From assembly GCF_016097555.1 (NCBI RefSeq), contig NC_054701.1, positions 6,135,093-6,199,092 on the forward strand: a DNA stretch of 64,000 bases. Direction: 5' to 3'. How positions within the stretch are numbered: the stretch's first letter is position 1; each line of letters opens with the position of its first letter. Below the pieces are notes generated by a model, which was given only the letters and a program-made list of their open reading frames with translations, searched no databases and was not told the origin of the DNA. This document shows positions 30,138-60,524 of the stretch, in pieces. Source of the stretch: Gigantopelta aegis. Taxonomy: Eukaryota; Mollusca; Gastropoda; Neomphalida; Peltospiridae. The position numbers and the translations under genes were made by a program.

Positions 30138-30251
30138 ATTATACCGTGATATAGGAAATATGTATTTACTTTTCTTACACTTGGTTGTTTGAATATAAGT
30201 CGTTATTTATGATAACACACACCTAATAACACGTGCAATATCGATTTAAAG

Positions 30252-30549
30252 TTAATGTTTGTTTTGTTTAATGACATCACTAGAGCACATTGATTTATTA
30301 ATTTATGGACTATTGAATATCACACATTTGGTAATTTTGACATTTAGTATTAGACAGGAAACCAGCTACATTTTCCCATTAGTAACAAGGGATCTTTTAT
30401 ATGCACCATCCCCTATACAGGATAACACATACCACAACCTTTGCTAACCAGTCGTGGTATACTGGCTATAATGGCCTTGGCAACGGGGATCGATCCTACA
30501 CCAACAGCGCATCAGGCAAGCGCTTTACCACTAGGCTACATCCCACCCT
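30252..30549 (-). mobile_element. SINE, head A / tail 2
   Basis: Same tRNA-like head and middle as the other copies (CACTAGGCTACATCCCACCC end), but a different tail: GACATCACTAGAGCACATTG and TAATTTTGACATTTAGTATT. Tail 2 also occurs at 30875, 60230 and 52606 and inside the inverted repeats of the 39543-46316 element. Confidence 0.82.
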
Positions 30550-39536: not shown

Positions 39537-39542
39537 CCTAAT
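39537..39542 (+). other. Target-site duplication, left (CCTAAT)
   Basis: CCTAAT directly outside the left inverted repeat. The same six bases lie directly outside the right one at 46317-46322. Six bases is the Polinton/Maverick duplication length. Confidence 0.93.
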
Positions 39543-40911
39543 AGTAGTAAGGAGGCCTGTCTGGGGTCATGACCTACTTTCCCGTGATCACGTGACCTTG
39601 AGACAATGGGCTTGGTGTAGACAATGGGGCTTGGTGTAGACAATGGGCTTTGTGTAGGAACCAATGGCCTTTGTGCAGGTGTCTGACCTGGGTAGGAAAC
39701 AATGGCCTTTGTGTAGGAAACAATGGCCTTTGTCTAGGAGTGTGCAGGTGTCTGACCTAGGTAGGAAACAATGGCTTTTGTGTAGGAAACAATGGTCTGG
39801 GTGCAGGTGTGCGATCATGGTGTATTCAATTCAATGTATTGCATATTACCAAACAAACTGGTGTCGGCAAACAAATAAAAGCAAAGAAACAACAACAATT
39901 AATAATAACAATATGTACAGGCCAAGTGTAAGTCTGACGTTGGTTTTGGCTTCATTGTATAACGTCTATTGTGTTGTTTTTTGTATTCACAGTGGACATA
40001 CACGTGAATTTTTTTCAAAGTGTTTTATTCTAGACACCCAAAATAATAGCCGTTAAAATATGTCTCGTGGGGAAGGACTGTAGCTGTTTGCTGACTGTTT
40101 GGTCTAAAGTGAGGCTTTCATGTCGCCAGACAAAATGCGTGTGTGATGATTTTCATTCATTTGTATTTCTTTAGCACATTGTCGACGTTTTCTTTGTTGT
40201 CGTCATTCAGCCATTCATTCATTCGCTTTATAATAGAGGAGTACTTTATCAGACCTCTTCATCGGCCCTCATACAAAGACATTTTATTACGCCTCTCCGA
40301 GTGTTTATGAAAACAGGTGAACTGCAAAAGACATACCGACGCGTGCCCGTCTCAAGTAGCAGAATAAATTTGTTATGGTATGCACACTGACCGTGAAAGT
40401 TTGTTTGTGTGTTTAGCGACATCACTAGAGTACATTGATTTATGAATCATCGGTTATTGGATGAAAAACATAATTCTGACAGTTTTAGAGAGGAAACCCG
40501 CTACATTTTTTCCATGAGTAGCAAGGGATCTTTTATATACACAATCTCATACCCCTTATGGGGCCAGTATTTCATAATTAAACACAAACTTTTTGTGCGT
40601 GCGTGCGTGCGTGTGTGTGTGTGTGAAACACTACAGCCCATTCCTATGAAGAAAGAACGCGTGACTGCAACTCAACGCTCCAACCTAACCTATGCTCTTT
40701 TAACTACATTTTAAACACGAGAATTTCCCAAGTCTACAAGCCTTTAGAGACAACCAGTGTATTATGTCTGGTATATCAAAGGCCGTGGTATGTGCTGTCC
40801 TGTACACACAACTCTTGCTACTATAAAGTAGCGGCAGAAATATTCAATCACAAATCTAGTTATAGAGTAGAATACACAAAAAACAAACGCAATGGTTGAG
40901 AGAGAGAGAGG
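39543..40911 (+). repeat. Left terminal inverted repeat
   Basis: About 1.37 kb, matching the right repeat nearly base for base over most of its length. The outer 250 bases contain short tandem units (GGAAACAATGGCCTTTGTGT, GTGCAGGTGTCTGACCT), and unit number differs between the two sides. The inner part includes host SINE sequence: tail 2 at about 40400-40540 and a middle fragment (TATATCAAAGGCCGTGGTAT) at 40772. Confidence 0.92.
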
Positions 40912-41007
40912 GAGACAGACCATCAAAACCAGATGGGATTTCTTCAGTGCTCCTTCTGCACCCCCAACGGGTACCATCAATAGAATGATTCCAACTAAAC
41001 TGACTTG

Positions 41008-41016
41008 TATATAAGG
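41008..41016 (+). promoter_or_regulatory. TATA box before the BIR gene
   Basis: TATATAAGG, 29 bases before the first ATG of the frame at 41045 and 116 before the second in-frame ATG at 41132. Spacing suggests transcription starting near 41040, which favours the inner ATG. Confidence 0.55.
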
Positions 41017-41044
41017 CTGTGTTTTCTCTCCCAAGGGCTCATTC

Positions 41045-41710
41045 GTGCTTGAGAACTCGAAGAGAGCAGACGTGTTTGCTGATGATTTTGACATTTTTGT
41101 ATCTTGTTGCACTCTATCTGGAACGAAGACGATGGCATCAGGATATTCGAGCAGTGTTAGCAGCTGCAGCAGTGACGAAGGCGACGTCTTGATCTGTAAA
41201 TGTTCAGAAAGACACACGATCAAAAGAGTGACTACCAAACCTGAAGAAAATGACACAGATCAAACGGACGCTGCACGTGAACCCGGTGAAATTGTGGATG
41301 AAGACCCCATGGATATCCGTGAACCCGTCGAAATCGTGAACGAAGAACCCATGGATCAGACGGATGCTGCTCGAGAATATAAAACGGATGCTGCTCCCTA
41401 CGATGATGATGCCTACGACGCCGATGACGAATGGGATGGCCTTTCGAGACATTACTTGTTCTGTCATCGACCCGAAATGAGAGGATTCTATACACGAATG
41501 CAGACATTTGGGTGGTGGCCCTTACAGTTACGCCAGAAACCGAGGGAGCTCGCCAAGGCCGGTTTCTTCTACACGGGAGACCATGATGCCGTTGTCTGTT
41601 ACTGTTGTGGACTACGCGTCTACCGATGGCAGAGAATGGACGATCCAGTGATGGAACATTACAGACTGTCCCCGAGATGTCCCTATGTGAATAACGTGTT
41701 CAGACATTAA
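41045..41710 (+). CDS. BIR-domain (IAP-like) protein of the Polinton-type element
   Basis: A 221-residue frame; the inner ATG at 41132 (MASGYSSSVSSCSSDEG) may be the real start. Residues about 70-145 are acidic and internally repetitive (PMDIREPVEIVNEEPMDQTD). The C-terminal 75 residues form a baculovirus IAP repeat: LAKAGFFYTGDHDAVVCYCC, then W, DDP, EH and a final Cys (DDPVMEHYRLSPRCPYV) in zinc-binding spacing. BIR proteins bind and restrain caspases and related factors. No RING finger follows, so no E3 ligase part is seen. It was probably captured from a host IAP. An AATAAA at 41749-41754 can end the transcript. Confidence 0.87.
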   Translation: MLENSKRADVFADDFDIFVSCCTLSGTKTMASGYSSSVSSCSSDEGDVLICKCSERHTIKRVTTKPEENDTDQTDAAREPGEIVDEDPMDIREPVEIVNEEPMDQTDAAREYKTDAAPYDDDAYDADDEWDGLSRHYLFCHRPEMRGFYTRMQTFGWWPLQLRQKPRELAKAGFFYTGDHDAVVCYCCGLRVYRWQRMDDPVMEHYRLSPRCPYVNNVFRH

Positions 41711-41799
41711 ACACGTATTGCATGAGTGTGATACTTTTCGTTTTGTAAAATAAACTCGTGAATAACACGTTTTGTTTGTTATTAATTTAAGGGTGACCC

Positions 41800-41802
<3 letters not shown>

Positions 41803-41844
<42 letters not shown>
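41803..41844 (+). repeat. (TG)n microsatellite
   Basis: About 42 bases of TG repeat followed by short GTGGCCCTGAG-type repeats, between two genes of the element. Confidence 0.95.
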
Positions 41845-41846
<2 letters not shown>

Positions 41847-42012
41847 ACCTGTGACCCTGAGTATGGCCCTGAGTGGCCCTGAGTGTGGCCCTGTGTGAGG
41901 CCCTGAGTGTGGTCCCGGGAGTGGCCCTGAGCCGTGCACGAGCTATGCTTTGGGATGGGGGATGGGTCATACGTACCACACAAAGATTAAAAATGCGTGA
42001 AATTGTAGAGAG

Positions 42013-42020
42013 TATAAATA
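42013..42020 (+). promoter_or_regulatory. TATA box before the 42074 gene
   Basis: TATAAATA, 53 bases before the ATG. Confidence 0.55.
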
Positions 42021-42073
42021 AAAGGGGTAATGGGTAACATCGTCATTTGAGGTAGAACCTTCAGAGAAGCAAC

Positions 42074-42415
42074 ATGTCAAACCAGTACAAGTTGTATGTA
42101 CCCGACGTGGATAAGTGGACCCGTTTCTACAAGTTGCAAGCAGAAGGTAAACTTCAACCTCATTTTCCAGTGCAACGTGGTGGGAAAAGTCAGATGATGT
42201 ACAGTGTAGATCGATGTCTAGAACTGTATGACCCTACATGGAAAAAAGAAAAAGAGGAACAGAACAAGCCCCCGGCACCCAAAGTCGTAATGGTGTCCCC
42301 AACACAACAGGTGGTAGAGCAAGCCAAGGCCGAGCAGAAACGGAAACGTGAAGAGAGTGGCGTGGAACAGACACGACGAGAGCAGACTGGGCAAAAACGG
42401 CACAAGCATTTCTGA
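42074..42415 (+). CDS. Small basic protein of the Polinton-type element, unknown
   Basis: 113 residues. The N-terminal half is probably folded (YVPDVDKWTRFYKLQAEGK, then SVDRCLELYDPTW). The C-terminal half is Lys/Arg/Gln-rich and likely helical or disordered (EQKRKREESGVEQTRREQTG), ending in a KRHKHF nuclear-signal-like patch. No family recognised. Its position ahead of the ATPase and its basic tail would suit a nucleic-acid-binding or virion-minor protein, but that is inference. Confidence 0.7.
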   Translation: MSNQYKLYVPDVDKWTRFYKLQAEGKLQPHFPVQRGGKSQMMYSVDRCLELYDPTWKKEKEEQNKPPAPKVVMVSPTQQVVEQAKAEQKRKREESGVEQTRREQTGQKRHKHF

Positions 42416-42421
42416 GAAGAC

Positions 42422-42430
42422 TATAAAAGG
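42422..42430 (+). promoter_or_regulatory. TATA box before the ATPase gene
   Basis: TATAAAAGG, 56 bases before the ATG at 42487 and only 8 bases after the previous stop codon. An ATG at 42435 in another frame lies too close to the box to be in the transcript. Confidence 0.6.
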
Positions 42431-42486
42431 AGGCATGGCAGTTTCAACATCGCCAGTTCACGTCGAACACTTCAACAGTCAACATC

Positions 42487-43668
42487 ATGAATCAGAATTG
42501 GTTTATTCCGGAACATGTCATGAACAAAAGATCGTGTCCCGTATGTCCAAAGACTTTTTCAAAACCATCAAATATGCTACGTCATTGGAATACCTTCCAT
42601 TCAGCTCAACTCCAGGCTCCTCTGGCTCCTATAGCTCCGGCTCCTAGGGATCCTCTGGCTCCTCTAGCTCATATAGCTCCTGCTCCTGCTCCTAGGGCTC
42701 CTATAGCTCCTGCTCCTCTGGCTCCTATAGCTCCTCTGGCTCCTATAGCTCCGGCTCCTAGGGCTCCTAGGGCTCCTCTAGCTCATATAGCTCCTGCTCC
42801 GGCTCCTAGGGCTCCTATAACTCCTGCTCCTCTGGCTCCTGCTCCTCTGGCTCCTATAGCTCCTCTGGCTCCTATAGCTCCGGCTCCTAGGGCTCCTCTA
42901 GCTCATATAGCTCCTGCTCCTCTGACTCCTATAGCTCCTGCTCATAGGGCTCCTATAGCTCCTGCTCCGCTGCAGCAGCAGCCCCTAAGATTGTTACATC
43001 CGTTCACCATGATCGTGTCGGGACCCACGTCGTGTGGAAAAACATTTTTGTTGTACAAACTGCTAAGGGATGGTAAAATCCACCCGCCTTCCCAGCGCAT
43101 CATCTGGCTCTACAAACGATGGCAACCTCTCTATGATACGATCAAAATGGTTGCTCGAGTAAAATTTGCTCAAGGCATACCCGAGAATTTGGAAAAGGAT
43201 CATTATTTGGATCCCAGAGTCAGAAATCTCATCGTGTTGGACGACCTGATGTCTACAGCTGGAAAAGACTCTCGTATCACCGATCTGTTCACGGAAGGAA
43301 GTCATCACAGAAACCTCTCGGTGATTGCCATCAACCAGAACCTCTATAACAGCAAAGACCCGACACAGAGAAGAAACTGTCATTACCTGGCACTGTTCAA
43401 CAACCCCATCGACAAGCATCAGCAAGTCCTAACCTTGGCACAGCAGATGTATCCTGGAAATACTCGTCATTTCATGCAGCGGTTTGAGGAAGCTACCCAC
43501 AGGCCCTACGGACATCTCTTGGTGGACTTGAAACCGACCACGCCCGAACATTGGCGCCTTCGACCTAATGGTTTAGAGACGGGGCCGTCCGAATGGTATA
43601 TAAGCACGAGCGTAACGGCGAATGTCTCAGAACAGTTTCAACCACCGTCGGAGAAGGAGCTCTACTAG
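42487..43668 (+). CDS. Packaging ATPase (A32/FtsK type) with zinc finger and Ala-Pro linker
   Basis: 393 residues in three parts. Residues 17-38 form a C2H2 finger (C17, C20, H33, H38). Residues about 40-170 are an Ala/Pro-rich linker of PLAPIAPAP-type repeats, encoded by GGCTCCTATAGCTCCT-like DNA repeats. Residues about 172-390 are the ATPase: Walker A GPTSCGKT at 179-186, Walker B LIVLDDLM at 248-255, and a following sensor-like SVIAINQNLY segment. This is the genome-packaging motor family of Polintons and related large DNA viruses, which translocates DNA into capsids. The finger and repeat linker are additions to the usual ATPase core. The next gene starts six bases after the stop codon. 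Confidence 0.9.
   Translation: MNQNWFIPEHVMNKRSCPVCPKTFSKPSNMLRHWNTFHSAQLQAPLAPIAPAPRDPLAPLAHIAPAPAPRAPIAPAPLAPIAPLAPIAPAPRAPRAPLAHIAPAPAPRAPITPAPLAPAPLAPIAPLAPIAPAPRAPLAHIAPAPLTPIAPAHRAPIAPAPLQQQPLRLLHPFTMIVSGPTSCGKTFLLYKLLRDGKIHPPSQRIIWLYKRWQPLYDTIKMVARVKFAQGIPENLEKDHYLDPRVRNLIVLDDLMSTAGKDSRITDLFTEGSHHRNLSVIAINQNLYNSKDPTQRRNCHYLALFNNPIDKHQQVLTLAQQMYPGNTRHFMQRFEEATHRPYGHLLVDLKPTTPEHWRLRPNGLETGPSEWYISTSVTANVSEQFQPPSEKELY
43597..43604 (+). promoter_or_regulatory. TATA box before the 43675 gene
   Basis: TATATAAG, inside the end of the ATPase gene and 70 bases before the next ATG. Confidence 0.5.
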
Positions 43669-43674
43669 CAAATC

Positions 43675-44037
43675 ATGCAAAGAAACGCATTCAAGAGAAA
43701 ACTACCAGGCATACCCGCCTACGAAAGTGACGACGACGAAGAAGAAGATGAGGTAGAGCCCTATCTGAAAAAGGTCAAGAGGATGCAGTCTTGCGATACG
43801 TGTGGTCTGGTCTTTAAAGACGGGAGTGACTTGCAGCGACACGTGAAAACGTGCGAGGAGGGAAATGAAGAGCCGTCGTCCGATCTTGAAAACGAAGGCA
43901 TTCGTCTCATGATCGAGCGTGAATTCGACATCAATCGTGACTATTTCGAAAGCAAGAGGAAACGCTACGAAGAAAAAAAACATGTCCCAAGATGCCATCG
44001 AAAGAAACATGAAGACATTGCAATGGAAGTTATTTAA
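43675..44037 (+). CDS. Zinc-finger protein of the Polinton-type element
   Basis: 120 residues. Basic start (MQRNAFKRKLPGIPAY), an acidic DDDEEEDEVE stretch at about 19-28, then a single finger with C40, C43, H56 and C60 (CDTCGLVFKDGSDLQRHVKT), then a charged, probably helical tail. It resembles the finger at the start of the ATPase, so the two could share a partner or ancestry. Function unknown. Confidence 0.75.
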   Translation: MQRNAFKRKLPGIPAYESDDDEEEDEVEPYLKKVKRMQSCDTCGLVFKDGSDLQRHVKTCEEGNEEPSSDLENEGIRLMIEREFDINRDYFESKRKRYEEKKHVPRCHRKKHEDIAMEVI

Positions 44038-44260
44038 AGACACGTACTCTCGCTTTCTGACGTATATGTATTACTTTGACAAAGGCCCCAACACGAGAAA
44101 AATTCTACAGTTTGTGAATCCAGACAGAGATCTCAGACCGCAGATTCGTTCTAAATTAAATCAGTATCGTTCTTGGATTGGCGAATATTTGGACGAACTA
44201 GACGATGACGATACCGACGATGATGATACTGATGATGAGCACGAAGATGAAGAGAAATGA
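43982..44260 (+). CDS. Small acidic-tailed protein, overlapping the previous gene
   Basis: I take the ATG at 43982 (MSQDAIERNMKTLQWKLFKD), because the longer frame from 43919 would overlap more and its extra residues are simply the out-of-frame neighbour. 92 residues: a helical-looking front (YSRFLTYMYYFDKGPNTRKI) and an Asp/Glu-rich end (DDDDTDDDDTDDEHEDEEK). It overlaps the preceding gene by 56 bases in another frame. No family recognised. AATAAA at 44367-44372 follows. Confidence 0.65.
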   Translation: MSQDAIERNMKTLQWKLFKDTYSRFLTYMYYFDKGPNTRKILQFVNPDRDLRPQIRSKLNQYRSWIGEYLDELDDDDTDDDDTDDEHEDEEK

Positions 44261-44387
44261 ACACTCATGTTATTCACATGTCGCCCTTAAGGCCTCTCGA
44301 TGTAACCCAGTGTGTGTCCATTGCATGTGTAGTTGTCTCTAGAGAGACCAGCGATTGTACTTTAGAAATAAAAAATTTTTAAAACCA

Positions 44388-44583
44388 AACCATTGCGTTT
44401 GTTTTTTGTGTTTTTTACTCCATGACTAGATTTGTGATTGGATATTTCTACCGCTAATTTATAGTAGCAAGAGTTGTGTGCACAGGACATCACATACCAC
44501 GGCCTTTGATATACCAGACATAATGCACTGGTTGGCTATAGCCTATTTGGCCATCGATGGGGATCGATCCTAGATCGATCACT
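44388..44583 (+). repeat. Partial extra copy of the inner repeat end, plus SINE scrap
   Basis: 44388-44535 repeats, with clear divergence, the sequence at 44892-45038 (ACCATTGCGTTTGTTTTTTG, AGTAGCAAGAGTTGTGTG). It runs on into a SINE head fragment (GATGGGGATCGATCCTAGAT). Confidence 0.85.
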
Positions 44584-44715
44584 GTATTTACCCATTTGGT
44601 AATTAAAAAGTCCTGTACGAAGGCTAGTACTCTAGAGAAATTTCTGTTTAAAAATGCAGCTATTTCCCTTTGGTTAACACGTACTACTTGTTAAACCCAT
44701 GGCGGCGCGCGTCCC

Positions 44716-44892
44716 CCTCTCTCTCTCTCTCTCTCTCTCTCTAGCTGTCTCTTTCTCTGTCTATCTCTGTCTCTCTCTCTCTCTAGCTGTCTCTCTCTCT
44801 CTCTCTAGCTGTCCTTTCTCTGTCTGTCTCTCTCTCTCTCTCTAGCTGTCTCTTTCTCTGTCTATCTCTGTCTCTCTCTCTCTCTCTCTCTC
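44716..44892 (+). repeat. CT-rich microsatellite
   Basis: CT repeat broken by regularly spaced TAGCTGTCTCTTTCTCTGTC units, forming the inner edge of the right inverted repeat. Confidence 0.95.
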
Positions 44893-46316
44893 AACCATTG
44901 CGTTTGTTTTTTGTGTATTCTACTCTATAACTAGATTTGTGATTGAATATTTCTGCCGCTACTTTATAGTAGCAAGAGTTGTGTGTACAGGACAGCACAT
45001 ACCACGGCCTTTGATATACCAGACATAATACACTGGTTGTCTCTAAAGACTTGTAGTCTTGGGAAATTCTCGTGTTTAAAATGTAGTTAAAAGAGCATAG
45101 GTTAGGTTGGAGCGTTGAGTTGCAGTCACGCGTTCTTTCTTCATAGGAATGGGCTGTAGTGTTTCACACACACACACACGCACGCACGCACGCACAAAAA
45201 GTTTATGTTTAATTATGAAATACTGGCCCCATAAGGGGTATGAGATTGTGTATATAAAAGATCCCTTGCTACTCATGGAAAAAATGTAGCGGGTTTCCTC
45301 TCTAAAACTGTCAGAATTATGTTTTTCATCCAATAACCGATGATTCATAAATCAATGTACTCTAGTGATGTCGCTAAACACAAACAAACTTTCACGGTCA
45401 GTGTGCATACCATAACAAATTTATTCTGCTACTTGAGACGGGCACGCGTCGGTATGTCTTTTGCAGTTCACCTGTTTTCATAAACACTCGGAGAGGCGTA
45501 ATAAAATGTCTTTGTATGAGGGCCGATGAAGAGGTCTGATAAAGTACTCCTCTATTATAAAGCGAATGAATGAATGGCTGAATGACGACAACAAAGAAAA
45601 CGTCGACAATGTGCTAAAGAAATACAAATGAATGAAAATCATCACACACGCATTTTGTCTGGCGACATGAAAGCCTCACTTTAGACCAAACAGTCAGCAA
45701 ACAGCTACAGTCCTTCCCCACGAGACATATTTTAACGGCTATTATTTTGGGTGTCTAGAATAAAACACTTTGAAAAAACATTCACGTGTATGTCCACTGT
45801 GAATACAAAAAACAACACAATAGACGTTATACAATGAAGCCAAAACCAACGTCAGACTTACACTTGGCCTGTACATATTGTTATTATTAATTGTTGTTGT
45901 TTCTTTGCTTTTATTTGTTTGCCGACACCAGTTTGTTTGGTAATATGCAATACATTGAATTGAATACACCATGATCGCACACCTGCACCCAGACCATTGT
46001 TTCCTACACAAAGGCCATTGTTTTCCTACCGAGACCATACACCTGTACCAATCTATACAAAGGCCATTGTTTCCTACACAAAAGCCATTGTTTCCTACCT
46101 AGGTCAGACACCTGCACACTCCTAGACAAAGGCCATTGTTTCCTACACAAAGGCCATTGTTTCCTACCCAGGTCAGACACCTGCACAAAGGCCATTGGTT
46201 CCTACACAAAGCCCATTGTCTACACCAAGCCCCATTGTCTACACCAAGCCCATTGTCTCAAGGTCACGTGATCACGGGAAAGTAGGTCATGACCCCAGAC
46301 AGGCCTCCTTACTACT
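44878..46316 (-). repeat. Right terminal inverted repeat
   Basis: Inverted partner of 39543-40911, about 1.44 kb. A 90-residue reading frame at 45076-45348 here is identical to the one at 40442-40714 in the left repeat, which shows how alike the two are. The extra length lies in short tandem units near the outer end. Confidence 0.92.
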
Positions 46317-46322
46317 CCTAAT
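46317..46322 (+). other. Target-site duplication, right (CCTAAT)
   Basis: Identical to 39537-39542. Confidence 0.93.
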
Positions 46323-46565: not shown

Positions 46566-46890
46566 ATGGGAAAGAAATGTTTGATTTAACGACGCACTCA
46601 ACACATTTTATTTACGGTTATATGGCGTCAAACATGGTTAAGGACCACACAGATATTGAGAGAGGAAACCCGCTGTCGCCACGTCATGAGCTACTTTTTT
46701 CGATTAGCAGCAAGGGATCTTTTATATGCATCATCCCACAGACAGGGTAGTACATACCACGGCCTTTGATATACCAGTCGTGGTGCCATGGCTGGAACGA
46801 GAAATAGCTCAATGGGCCCCACCGACTTGGATCGATCCCAGACCGACCGCGCACCAAGCGAGCGCTTTACCACTGGGCTACTTCTCGCCC
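46566..46890 (-). mobile_element. SINE, head A / tail 1, seed of the adjacent satellite
   Basis: Tail GGGAAAGAAATGTTTGATTT at the left through the middle to the head at the right (CACTGGGCTACTTCTCGCCC). From about 46829 its head is the first unit of the 126-bp array. Confidence 0.9.
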
Positions 46891-49200
46891 TTAAAAAGGG
46901 AAGATACGGCGATTAAATCATTTAGATTGGCGCCAGAAACTAATAACGATTATTGGATCGATCCCAGACCGACCGCGCATCAAGCGAGCGCTTTACCACT
47001 GGGCTACTTCTCGCCCTTAAAAAGGGAAGATACGGCGATTAAATCATTTAGATTGGCGCCAGAAACTAATAACGATTATTGGATCGATCCCAGACCGACC
47101 GCGCACCAAGCGAGCGCTTTACCACTGGGCTACTTCTCGTCCTTAAAAAGGGAAAATACGGCGATTAAATCATTTAGATTGGCGCCAGAAACTAATAACG
47201 ATTATTGGATCGATCCCAGACCGACCGCGCACCAAGCGAGCACTTTACCACTGAGCTACTTCTCGTCCTTAAAAAGGGAAAATACGGCGATTAAATCATT
47301 TAGATTGGCGCCAGAAACTAATAACGATTATTGGATCGATCCCAGACCGACCGCGCACCAAGCGAGTGCTTTACCACTGGGCTACTTCTCGCCCTTAAAA
47401 AGGGAAGATACGGCGATTAAATCATTTAGATTGGCGCTAGAAACTAATAACGATTATTGGATCGATCCCAGACCGACGCGCACCAAGCGAGCGCTTTACC
47501 ACTGGGCTACTTCTCGTCCTTAAAAAGGGAAGATACGGCGATTAAATCATTTAGATTGGCGCCAGAAACTAATAACGATTATTGGATCGATCCCAGACCG
47601 ACCGCGCACCAAGCGAGCGCTTTACCACTGGGCTACTTCTCGCCCTTAAAAAGGGAAGATACGGCGATTAAATCATTTAGATTGGCGCCAGAAACTAATA
47701 ACGATTATTGGATCGATCCCAGACCGACCGCGCACCAAGCGAGCGCTTTACCACTGGGCTACTTCTCGTCCTTAAAAAGGGAAAATACGGCGATTAAATC
47801 ATTTAGATTGGCGCCAGAAACTAATAACGATTATTGGATCGATCCCAGACCGACCGCGCACCAAGCGAGCGCTTTACCACTGGGCTACTTCTCGCCCTTA
47901 AAAAGGGAAGATACGGCGATTAAATCATTTAGATTGGCGCCAGAAACTAATAACGATTATTGGATCGATCCCAGACCGACCGCGCACCAAGCGAGCGCTT
48001 TACCACTGGGCTACTTCTCGTCCTTAAAAAGGGAAGATACGGCGATTAAATCATTTAGATTGGCGCCAGAAACTAATAACGATTATTGGATCGATCCCAG
48101 ACCGACCGCGCACCAAGCGAGCGCTTTACCACTGGGCTACTTCTCGCCCTTAAAAAGGGAAGATACGGCGATTAAATCATTTAGATTGGCGCCAGAAACT
48201 AATAACGATTATTGGATCGATCCCAGACCGACCGCGCACCAAGCGAGCGCTTTACCACTGGGCTACTTCTCGTCCTTAAAAAGGGAAGATACGGCGATTA
48301 AATCATTTAGATTGGCGCCAGAAACTAATAACGATTATTGGATCGATCCCAGACCGACCGCGCACCAAGCGAGCGCTTTACCACTGGGCTACTTCTCGTC
48401 CTTAAAAAGGGAAGATACAGCGATTAAATCATTTAGATAGGCGCCAGAAACTAATAACGATTATTGGATCGATCCCAGACCGACCGCGCACCAAGCGAGC
48501 GCTTTACTACTGGGCTACTTCTCGTCCTTAAAAAGGGAATATACGGCGATTAAATCATTTAGATTGGCGCCAGAAACTAATAACGATTATTGGATCGATC
48601 CCAGACCGACCGCGCACCAAGCGAGCGCTTTACCACTGGGCTACTTCTCGTCCTTAAAAAGGGAAGATACGGCGATTAAATCATTTAGATTGGCGCCAGA
48701 AACTAATAACGATTATTGGATCGATCCCAGACCGACCGCGCACCAAGCGAGCGCTTTACCACTGGGCTACTTCTCGCCCTTAAAAAGGGAAGATACGGCG
48801 ATTAAATCATTTAGATTGGCGCTAGAAACTAATAACTATTATTGGATCGATCCCAGACCGACCGCGCACCAAGCGAGCGCTTTACCACTGGGCTACTTCT
48901 CGTCCTTAAAAAGGGAAGATACGGCGATTAAATCATTTAGATTGGCGCCAGAAACTAATAACGATTATTGGATCGATCCCAGACCGACCGCGCACCAAGC
49001 GAGCGCTTTACCACTGGGCTACTTCTCGTCCTTAAAAAGGGAAGATACGGCGATTAAATCATTTAGATTGGCGCCAGAAACTAATAACGATTATTGGATC
49101 GATCCCAGACCGACCGCGCACCAAGCGAGCGCTTTACCACTGGGCTACTTCTCGTCCTTAAAAAGGGAAGATACGGCGATTAAATCATTTAGATTTATCG
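46829..49200. repeat. 126-bp satellite, 19 copies, containing a SINE head
   Basis: Each unit is the inverted tRNA-like head of the SINE (GGATCGATCCCAGACCGACC through CTGGGCTACTTCTCGTCC) plus about 60 bases of former flank (AAAAAGGGAAGATACGGCGA, GGCGCCAGAAACTAATAACG). Anchors run from 46829 to 49096; total drift is one base, from a single deletion in the unit near 47475. Units are nearly identical. Since 126 is divisible by three, the array stays open for hundreds of codons (42-residue repeats) without being a gene. After the last unit the flank string CGCCAGAAACTAATAACGGT continues into unique DNA. Confidence 0.96.
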
Positions 49201-51140
49201 CCAGAAACTAATAACGGTTATTGATTATTGATATTTAGAAATTATGTTAGTACATACGCAAATACTGGGAGGTAAAATCTAGTATTGTTATCTTTGGCTG
49301 CATTAAATGATATGCAGTAGCTGGTATTCCTTAAACTGCATTCGGCATATTTTGTTCAGATAAGCAGAAATATGGTGACAATTAAAATATGACACTTTCA
49401 AAATGCGATCGCTTCTAAGTCGGGCTGTGTTTATAGGGCATGCCTATGTTCACACACATCTTGTTCACATTTAGAGTAAAAAATTCCTACATTATTAATA
49501 AAATTTTGATTAATTTAGTAATGTCACATACAAGTAAGCTACACACAATAGTATCTAAACTGATAATGTAATCAACTGCATAATTGTAGACAACGAATCT
49601 TCAATACTCTTCCTATAGTATACCCCCTGCCTTGGTGTAACGCAATACTTGACACTGACAAGGATATTTACACAGTGATCAAGTTTGAACTGCCTAACTT
49701 AAGATAAAAAAAACCCGCGGCTAAAGTTTCAAACAAAATATATCTCTAAAATAAATAGGTGTACCATGTTCATCCCAAATGTGTATTTAGTGTTGTTACG
49801 GGTGTTCCTTTTACGACATTGGACTCACTTCCTGGTTATCACCTGAGAAAGAGAAACACAAATTTACGAATGTGTTTTATCTTATATTCAAAACTCCTGC
49901 CATGATGGCTTCCTTCTGGTGTTAAGTGAAAAGACTGCAGCCATGTATGATTGGAACGAACTGAAATGAATAACTGAATGTTTAACGACACACCAACACA
50001 AAAATGCACCGTCTATTGGGTGTCAAGCAATGGTAAAAATGAGAATGATCAACATTAGGCTAATATAAAATAAAAAACACAGTATAAAGAGCTGTGCAAA
50101 GTAGTCTATAAATATAACAATTATATTAAAATTTCGTGTAACGTTGGTACTGGTTAACAATATGTAAGTTTAATGTCATGACTGGACTCGAGAATAATCA
50201 AACTAAAGCTCTGTGGCATCAGAATTAGGGGGAAAAAGTATTTTAAACACAGTACGTAGCTTCCGACCATTTGGTTGTTGGCGATTGCCAAAGCATTACA
50301 TAGTGTTTTCTATCAACAAGGGTAGGGCTGGAGGTGACTCGAGCTACTTCATGTAGTATGTGTATTGGTGATTAATAATAAATATGTGTATTTTGTTTTA
50401 TCAAGGAACTCTAAAATGATCGTGTAAAGGTATTTAACGTCAAACATAGGACTGTTGTTGTATTAGAGCGCGAATCTTGGACTACCGTTTGGGAGGCACA
50501 GATTGCGCAATATTGATATAGTAGATTGTTCTCTGACGGTAATGAGTGTATAACTGTCCAAATGTCTGTCTAACTCTCTTACCGTCAGAGTACTCGGACT
50601 ACCGCGGATCCAGGGGTGGGGAGGGGGGTCGAGGGAAGGTCTGGACTCCCCTTAGTTCTAGCGTTATTGAGTCATTCTGCAATAACTGGGAGATTTCAGG
50701 TCCAATTAAAATAAAATGTTGACTACCTTCTGTCTCTCTTTCTCTTCATCAGGTAGTATCATTAGTAAATAAGTGTAATTACAGCAGTGATTTATCTGGC
50801 CGATTTCGATTTAAAATGTATTGAAATCTGCATGGTGTCCCATCTCAGTGTCATCTACGTCACGACATGTAGCCTTTCTTGAACTTCCATTTATTTTGTT
50901 TCCCATATGATTTAACCTAATAATGTGAATCCCAGTATATTTACATCATTTTGTAAAACTAATATTGACATTGTTTGATATCTTAGACATAACTAACAGT
51001 ATCCAGGCTCTCGAACTGTGACGGTCTGTCAGACATTCACCGTAATCAGATGTAGATACTCACTATATCAAGGTACTTTTAAATTTTATTAGTGCAGGAA
51101 CTTGTGTGAAGTTAAACAAGTGCATTCCCTACTTAACACA
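49201..51140. other. Mostly unassigned; small repeat fragments
   Basis: No gene recognised. 49975-50035 resembles another SINE tail (GAATGTTTAACGACACACCA). 50185-50260 is similar to 57895-57970 (AATCAAACTAAAGCTCTGTG), marking a dispersed repeat. One CATCTACGTCAC motif lies at 50850. Confidence 0.45.
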
Positions 51141-60022: not shown

Positions 60023-60312
60023 AATTGGGACATAGCCCAGTGGTAAAGTGTTTGCTTGATGCACAGTCGGCCTAGGATCAATCCTCGTTGGTGGGCCCAT
60101 TAGGTTATTTCTCGTTCCAGTCAGTGCACCATGACTGGTATATCAAAGGCCATGGTATATGCTATCCTGTTTGTGGGATGGTGCATATAAAAGATCCCTT
60201 ACTACTAATGGAAATATGTAGTGAGTTTCCTCTCTAAGACTACATGTCAAGACATCCAATAGCTGATGATTTATAAATCAATGTGCTCTAGTGGTGTCAT
60301 TAAACAAAACAA
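60023..60312 (+). mobile_element. SINE, head A / tail 2, full length
   Basis: Head (GGGACATAGCCCAGTGGTAA), middle and tail 2 (ATCAATGTGCTCTAGTGGTG, ending ATTAAACAAAACAAAC). It begins a few bases after PEX26 exon 3. Confidence 0.88.
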
Positions 60313-60524
60313 ACTTCTTGATTGGCATTTCATCCTTGCTTATTGGTTAATACTGGTTTGTACCACCCGATCAACTTTTGATTAATTGGTAGAATTATAT
60401 TAACATAAGGACCCTACAAAGTGCTACTTTTACCCTTAATACCTATGCTAGATGAAATGGTCACTTTCAAACTTAAAACATCCATTTCCCTATTGTCCAG
60501 GATGCAACCATCACATTACCTAGG

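What the first reader, a model, noticed from the sequence alone, without database searches (positions are those of the whole stretch)
39537..46322. A 6.8-kb Polinton-type element with exact 6-bp target duplication and only five genes
Seen: CCTAAT on both sides, AG-starting 1.4-kb inverted repeats, five compact genes including a packaging ATPase. Known: Polintons duplicate 6 bp and normally span 15-20 kb with polymerase, integrase, protease and capsid genes. Inferred: this is a small derivative that keeps a packaging motor and a BIR gene but no replication or integration gene, so it may move as a satellite of a full element. Keeping a packaging ATPase while lacking capsid genes is unexpected for a simple deletion product.
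Basis: partly seen in the sequence, partly recalled or inferred. Interest (0 to 1): 0.85.

Follow-up and report, generated by a model that had tools for sequence, protein, structure and literature searches.

The report
Polinton satellite keeping its own motor
This is one copy of a common family of short mobile DNA elements in an animal genome that kept a DNA-moving motor gene but lost the genes for copying, inserting and packaging themselves, so they probably ride on larger virus-like elements called Polintons.

Summary
In detail: a 6,774-bp element (39543-46316) with exact CCTAAT duplications, near-identical 1.38/1.45-kb inverted repeats, and no polymerase or integrase. The gene count does not: in relatives the three right-hand ORFs are one long ORF (zinc finger, Pro/Ala linker, A32-like ATPase, zinc finger, C-terminal domain), so the set is BIR, B and this ORF, broken here. 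It is a recurring family. A terminus pattern matches 394 places (reversed control 0); of 31 adjacent end pairs in the 100 listed, 26 are 4.4-7.5 kb. Of 11 copies with both ends, 10 have exact 6-bp duplications; none of the 10 fetched shows integrase, protease, capsid-like or polymerase genes. The (AGT)2 ends and BIR match a 15.3-kb Polinton ('family A'), but the long ORF groups with another family ('E'): a mosaic, not a simple deletion. The genes are under purifying selection, also against a second 6-kb subfamily (dN/dS 0.17). Best reading: a non-autonomous Polinton family inserted in trans by family A, possibly using its own motor to enter Polinton capsids. The capsid step is untested, and family E keeps the same motor in a 10.3-kb element where I found no capsid gene.

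The parts
39537..39542 (.). left 6-bp target-site duplication CCTAAT
46317..46322 (.). right 6-bp target-site duplication CCTAAT
39543..40920 (+). left terminal inverted repeat (1,378 bp), begins with (AGT)2
   Evidence: end motif as in vertebrate Mavericks (PMC8097293)
44870..46316 (-). right terminal inverted repeat (1,447 bp; one extra 70-nt stretch)
44388..44540 (-). second, 92% identical copy of the inner end of the inverted repeat
   Evidence: I5, D4
41132..41710 (+). BIR-domain gene, 192 aa
   Evidence: PF00653 3.1e-22; dN/dS 0.30 pooled; homologous to BIR of full-length Polinton L029
42074..42415 (+). gene B, 113 aa, unknown, basic C-terminus
   Evidence: no Pfam hit; present in 10 of 10 fetched paired copies; sits beside a capsid-like gene in L049
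42487..43668 (+). first piece of the long ORF: C2H2 finger, Pro/Ala-rich repeats, ATPase; ended by an in-frame stop in this copy
42535..42600 (+). N-terminal C2H2 zinc finger
   Evidence: PF00096 3.2e-5, slightly below cut-off; coordinates from sequence
42607..42978 (+). low-complexity Pro/Ala-rich linker (repeats)
   Evidence: D1
43021..43044 (+). Walker A GPTSCGKT
   Evidence: sequence; first G, K and T invariant in alignment A1 of 8 proteins
43675..44037 (+). second piece of the long ORF: second zinc finger
   Evidence: PF00096 1.1e-3, below cut-off; same ORF as ATPase in L009, L010, L021
43982..44260 (+). third piece of the long ORF: C-terminal domain, acidic tail; out of frame in this copy
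   Evidence: dN/dS 0.165 pooled

Best explanation
A non-autonomous Polinton (Maverick) family whose members carry [BIR] - B - one long zinc finger/ATPase/zinc finger gene between long inverted repeats. SHOWN by comparison: repeated ~6-kb family, 6-bp duplications, (AGT)2 ends and BIR shared with family-A Polintons, long ORF grouping with that of family E, purifying selection. INFERRED, likely: recent activity; integration in trans by a family-A integrase that reads the shared ends; copying by a Polinton polymerase outside the chromosome. INFERRED, uncertain: the element's own motor and B select its short DNA and load it into capsids made by family A, as a packaging satellite; BIR would keep the host cell alive.
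For: Copies: 394 pattern matches, reversed control 0+0; among the 100 listed, 31 adjacent pairs: 26 of 4.4-7.5 kb, 4 of 0.75-3.4 kb, 1 of 15.3 kb. Trans-mobilisation: 0 of 150 ATPase places lie within 20 kb of any of 85 PolB places; 0 of 10 fetched paired copies has INT, PRO, CAP or PolB hits, while L029 as positive control rings for 9 of 10 queries, all but family-E PolB. The 15.3-kb pair encloses PolB, integrase, an adenain-like protease and ATPase. L031, another PolB locus, matches the window terminus at 78% over 274 bp. Replication outside the chromosome: the 27-bp ends are identical within 26 of 31 pairs, shuffled mean 1.4, max 7. Mosaic: a 98/95-supported split puts small elements with family E, apart from A. 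Selection: dN/dS 0.165-0.52 by gene, 0.174 for the long ORF between subfamilies. Packaging: B lies directly upstream of a capsid-like gene in L049; the ATPase is homologous to those of PolB-linked Polintons.
Against: No particle, RNA or protein evidence. Four pairs of 0.75-3.4 kb with the same ends, and the 3.6-kb copy L025 lacking the ATPase domain, show that mobilisation does not need the motor in cis. Family E keeps the motor in a 10.3-kb element with no capsid or protease hit, so it may serve replication or integration. With the 15.3-kb Polinton only the outermost ~35 bp and BIR align, not the rest of the inverted repeat. The capsid-like gene of family A is named from memory and position; no database matched it. 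'Packaging' rests on homology below Pfam cut-offs.
Confidence: 0.55

Rival explanations
1. The same non-autonomous family, but the zinc finger/ATPase/zinc finger protein is a DNA translocase used in replication, excision or integration (for example handling of the linear intermediate), not in capsid filling.
For: The family-E element C4:78354008-78364315 (10,308 bp, TSD AAAGGA) shows only PolB, integrase and this motor; family-A capsid-like and protease queries do not hit its pieces. In L034 the integrase and motor genes are neighbours on one strand.
Against: The ATPase domain is homologous to the ATPases of Polintons, for which PMC4028283 states genome packaging (passages). B sits beside a capsid-like gene in L049. 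Family E could itself be a capsid parasite.
Confidence: 0.3
2. Passive hitch-hiker: the element spreads only through its ends, and the ORFs are leftovers of an ancestral Polinton.
For: Gene-poor copies with the same ends exist. Many copies have stops or frame breaks: 6 of the 9 fetched paired copies that hold the ATPase.
Against: dN/dS below 1 in all five compared pieces, 0.165-0.52, and 0.174 between subfamilies at dS 0.915. 131 of 150 listed ATPase places have no stop in the 231-aa span by my count, though the ranking favours intact ones.
Confidence: 0.08
3. Deletion derivative of one full-length Polinton.
For: Shares ends and BIR with family A.
Against: ATPase only 36% identical to family A and grouped with E. 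Two subfamilies whose inverted repeats do not align share B and the long ORF.
Confidence: 0.04
4. Autonomous element with an unrecognised replicase or recombinase in B or the C-terminal domain.
For: B has no relative in the libraries tried.
Against: Ends and duplications fit Polinton integrase. B is about 110 aa and occurs beside PolB or capsid-like genes in L048 and L049.
Confidence: 0.03

Closest known systems
Polinton/Maverick (polintovirus), vertebrate Mavericks of PMC8097293
   Same: 6-bp duplications, (AGT)2//(ACT)2 ends, inverted repeats (46-1,447 bp reported), ATPase gene
   Different: 6.8 kb against 12.7-24.6 kb; no PolB, integrase, protease or capsid genes found
Capsid-less Polintons noted in PMC4028283
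   Same: no capsid genes
   Different: there, nine of the MCP-less elements also lacked protease and ATPase; here the ATPase stays. That survey dropped elements under 10 kb as incomplete (passages)
Transpovirons (PMC7031253)
   Same: about 7 kb DNA with TIRs, use another virus's particles to propagate (abstract listing; passages)
   Different: associated with giant viruses of amoebae; TIRs 380-520 nt; gene sets not compared here; ours are chromosomal insertions with 6-bp duplications
Phage-inducible islands (PICI), recalled, no call
   Same: small satellite carrying its own packaging-specificity gene for helper capsids (analogy only)
   Different: bacterial; proteins not compared

Membership tests
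Polinton/Maverick | 6-bp target-site duplication | tested here: met
   exact in 10 of 11 copies with both ends, one mismatch in 1; exact in the one subfamily-2 copy examined
Polinton/Maverick | TIRs with (AGT)2//(ACT)2 or (AG)3 ends | tested here: met
   AGTAGT...ACTACT (definition)
Polinton/Maverick | protein-primed PolB | tested here: not met
   no hit in the window element or in 10 of 10 fetched paired copies
Polinton/Maverick | RVE integrase | tested here: not met
Polinton/Maverick | packaging-type ATPase | tested here: met
   36-43% identity to PolB-linked ATPases, 29% to a third kind (L036); 26 invariant columns in 8 proteins incl. Walker A G, K, T. Pfam matches stay below cut-off; packaging function itself not tested
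Polinton/Maverick | capsid proteins and protease | tested here: not met
   no hit with family-A queries
Polinton/Maverick | length 12-25 kb | tested here: not met
   6,774 bp; 26 of 31 listed pairs 4.4-7.5 kb
Non-autonomous derivative of a Polinton family | many copies sharing ends with an autonomous element of the same genome | tested here: met
   trans-mobilisation itself not shown
Capsid-using satellite | DNA found in helper particles | not testable with these tools
   needs particle sequencing
Transpoviron | giant-virus association and transpoviron gene set | not tested
   comparison from passages only

The most novel reading that the evidence does not exclude
An animal genome holds a layered parasite system. 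Capsid-bearing Polinton viruses (family A) are exploited by two capsid-less kinds that share one special motor: a 10.3-kb element that brings its own polymerase and integrase, and 6-kb elements that bring only the motor, B and sometimes BIR. The zinc-finger motor is a DNA-choosing loader that pirates family-A capsids, so its survival under selection would be indirect evidence that animal Polintons make particles.
Probability: 0.3. Interest if true: 0.85.

Novelty: new variant of a known kind. Interest (0 to 1): 0.65.

Why it matters
Particles of Mavericks had not been observed according to the abstract of PMC8097293 (seen in the listing), so whether animal Polintons are packaged viruses is open. 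A high-copy family that keeps only a motor under selection while lacking copying, inserting and capsid genes is what a packaging satellite would look like, and would make the question testable by sequencing protected DNA. If instead the motor works without capsids (as family E hints), the accepted role of the Polinton ATPase needs revision. Surveys that drop elements under 10 kb would miss it.

Tried and rejected
Five-gene reading: rejected. Simple deletion of family A: disfavoured. Homology of the C-terminal domain to the ORF next to family-A ATPase: not supported (20 of 500 shuffles as high). Structure: AlphaFold of B alone mean pLDDT 68 and ATPase alone 33 (unusable); Foldseek of B against viral models found nothing with E <= 0.001. 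Viral contigs: 0 relatives in three scans. PDB: single-sequence and profile searches gave zinc fingers and weak P-loop hits, no viral motor named in the rows shown. PHROGs: nothing useful. Papers: (six phrases for non-autonomous, truncated or derived Polintons/Mavericks) gave 3 papers, each holding only 'Polinton-derived', listing only; listings showed none that I recognised as this. Most subscription papers are not in the library, so 'not in print' is not claimed.

Results against me: mobilisation does not need the motor in cis. TIR identity within copies (11 copies, median 97.7%) overlaps that between copies (220 comparisons, median 93.5%, range 81-99%), and L021 is 84%. BIR is absent in 5 of 10 fetched paired copies. 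The family-E likeness of the C-terminal domain is weak (E 0.003 and 2e-4). Only 3 of the 7 family-E loci fetched lie near a PolB row (L033, L034, L045). L017, a one-ended locus outside the 10, has a 35% match to family-E PolB about 8 kb inside its end, not followed up.
Full report
OBSERVATION. The element is 39543-46316, 6,774 bp, flanked by CCTAAT on both sides. It begins AGTAGTAAGG and ends CCTTACTACT. The inverted repeats are 1,378 and 1,447 bp and differ by 5 substitutions, one 70-nt stretch and two 1-2-nt gaps. The vertebrate Maverick paper PMC8097293 (section 7 read; passages) gives (AGT)2//(ACT)2 as the commonest end motif, 6-bp duplications, and TIRs of 46-1,447 bp, so all three terminal traits fit.

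GENES. Pfam finds BIR (E 3.1e-22), two C2H2 fingers (slightly below cut-off), and weak Pox_A32 and Adeno_IVa2 matches below cut-off in the ATPase; B and the C-terminal piece have no match. Nine other window ORFs tested show nothing of use. The 'five genes' are three: in copies L009, L010 and L021 the ATPase, second finger and C-terminal piece are one ORF of 520, 552 and 610 aa (in L009 the ORF does not reach the first finger). That is 3 of the 9 fetched paired copies that hold the ATPase; in the other 6 the frame is broken, not all in the same place. In the window copy the ORF is split by an in-frame stop and a frame change.

FAMILY. The 358-bp terminus gave 76 match rows from 40 scored of 778 candidates. 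I fetched 20 loci: 10 of 20 showed both ends, and with the window that makes 11 copies, of 3.6 to 9.7 kb (the 9.7-kb one, L020, seems to hold extra sequence inside a TIR). Duplications are exact in 10 of 11, one mismatch in L010. Of the 10, B is in 10, the ATPase domain in 9, BIR in 5, and integrase, protease, capsid-like or PolB hits in 0 (L029 as positive control rings for 9 of 10 queries, all but family-E PolB). The pattern AGTAGTANNNNGGCCTGNNNGGNGYCA matches 195+199 times, reversed control 0+0 (100 of 394 listed). From those 100, 31 adjacent plus/minus pairs: 26 of 4.4-7.5 kb, 4 of 0.75-3.4 kb, 1 of 15,283 bp; 14 of 31 enclose one of the 150 listed ATPase places. The ATPase search scored 150 of 1,521 candidates, all at 91% identity or more; 19 of 150 have a stop in the span by my count, and the list is ranked by similarity, so it favours intact copies.

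HELPERS. The 15,283-bp pair on C3 holds a PC4-like gene, BIR (in two frames), integrase with chromodomain, a capsid-like gene in pieces, an adenain-like protease (E 4.7e-4, just below cut-off), ATPase and PolB, flanks CACAAA/CACAAC. The capsid-like gene is named from memory and position; no library matched it. I call this family A. The window element shares with it the outermost ~35 bp (sequence) and, over 798 bp at 71%, the BIR gene with its upstream DNA; the rest of the inverted repeat does not align. BIR of small copies L015 and L021 is 82% identical in DNA to that of L029 but 71% to the window's, which suggests more than one exchange of BIR between small and full elements. L031, another PolB locus, matches the window TIR end at 78% over 274 bp.

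MOSAIC. Family-A ATPase is 36% identical to the window's. A different group, family E, has ORFs of about 500-540 aa or more with the same order: finger, Pro- or Ala-rich linker, ATPase 43%, finger 47%, C-terminal domain 34-36% (weak, E 0.003 and 2e-4). I fetched 7 such loci: 6 read as one ORF (4 of them cut by the end of the stretch), L043 matches in pieces; 3 of 7 lie near a PolB row. The ATPase tree of 16 rows (drawn at the midpoint) has a 98/95 split that puts small elements with family E, apart from A and a third kind. One family-E element is 10,308 bp, TIR 637 bp 99.5%, TSD AAAGGA, ends TGATGA; in it I find PolB, the motor and an integrase interrupted by about 1.4 kb, and no hit for family-A capsid-like or protease queries. 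A second small subfamily (one copy examined on C6, about 6.0 kb, TSD CATATC, (AGT)2 ends, TIR about 1.4 kb at 99.6%) has B and the long ORF but a TIR that does not align to the window's, and no BIR hit. Modules have been exchanged: L049 has B directly upstream of a capsid-like gene in a PolB-linked locus, and L048 has B plus the finger/poly-Pro start of the long ORF upstream of a family-A PolB (86%).

SELECTION AND AGE. Pooled dN/dS among fetched copies: BIR 0.30, B 0.52, ATPase 0.27, second finger 0.24, C-terminal piece 0.165 (7 to 15 copies each). Between subfamilies over 414 codons, dS 0.915, dN 0.160, ratio 0.174. The window copy is probably young: its TIRs differ by 5 substitutions in about 1.38 kb.

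END HOMOGENISATION. The 27-bp ends are identical within 26 of 31 pairs, while 27 variants occur; shuffled pairs give a mean of 1.4, maximum 7. This suggests that one end is copied from the other before insertion, as in linear replicons that pair their ends (inference). Over 600 bp the contrast is weaker (within median 97.7%, between 93.5%, overlapping; same call).

MECHANISM. Most likely: copied by a Polinton polymerase as linear DNA, inserted in trans by a family-A integrase through the shared ends. The motor and B may load the short DNA into family-A capsids, and BIR may delay cell death. Only the anatomy, descent and selection are shown. The strongest counter-case is family E, which keeps the motor where no capsid gene was found; either the motor has a capsid-free job, or E too is a capsid parasite.

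KNOWN. PMC4028283 (passages) removed elements under 10 kb as incomplete and reports that nine MCP-less elements also lacked protease and ATPase; this family differs from that pattern. Transpovirons (PMC7031253, passages) are the nearest analogue in size and shape. Searches of the open library for non-autonomous Polintons listed no paper that I recognised as describing this (listings only).

Noticed in passing
L038/L033/L037 (G000:C4:78354008-78364315): 10.3-kb element with PolB, integrase (interrupted) and zinc-finger ATPase, no capsid or protease hit; 6-bp duplication AAAGGA, ends TGATGATAA.
   Followed up: partly
L048:258-3201: B and the first finger/poly-Pro part of the long ORF lie directly upstream of a family-A PolB (86%): a recombinant arrangement.
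   Followed up: partly
L049:257-1951: B lies immediately upstream of a capsid-like gene in a PolB-linked locus, the position that 'pw' holds before the major capsid gene in vertebrate Mavericks (positional only).
   Followed up: partly
L022:5536-5879: A small element carries a PC4-like gene next to BIR, as in the full-length Polinton L029.
   Followed up: no
window 40393-40549, also 30251-30410 and 60174-60316: About 150 bp of the inverted repeat resemble a dispersed repeat found elsewhere in the window and in other loci.
   Followed up: no
window 46827-49223: 126-bp tandem repeat, 19 copies, 98% matches, reading as long ORFs in more than one frame, just beside the element.
   Followed up: no
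L025:6202-9800: 3.6-kb copy with exact duplication GCTGCT, keeping BIR, B and the first 82 aa of the long ORF but missing the ATPase domain: an internal-deletion derivative.
   Followed up: no
G000:C3:37994362-37995112 and C3:61282213-61283660: 0.75- and 1.45-kb end pairs with the same termini: probable gene-free miniature forms, sequence not read.
   Followed up: no
L017:796-1416: 35% match to family-E PolB about 8 kb inside an AGTAGTA end: possibly another element kind.
   Followed up: no
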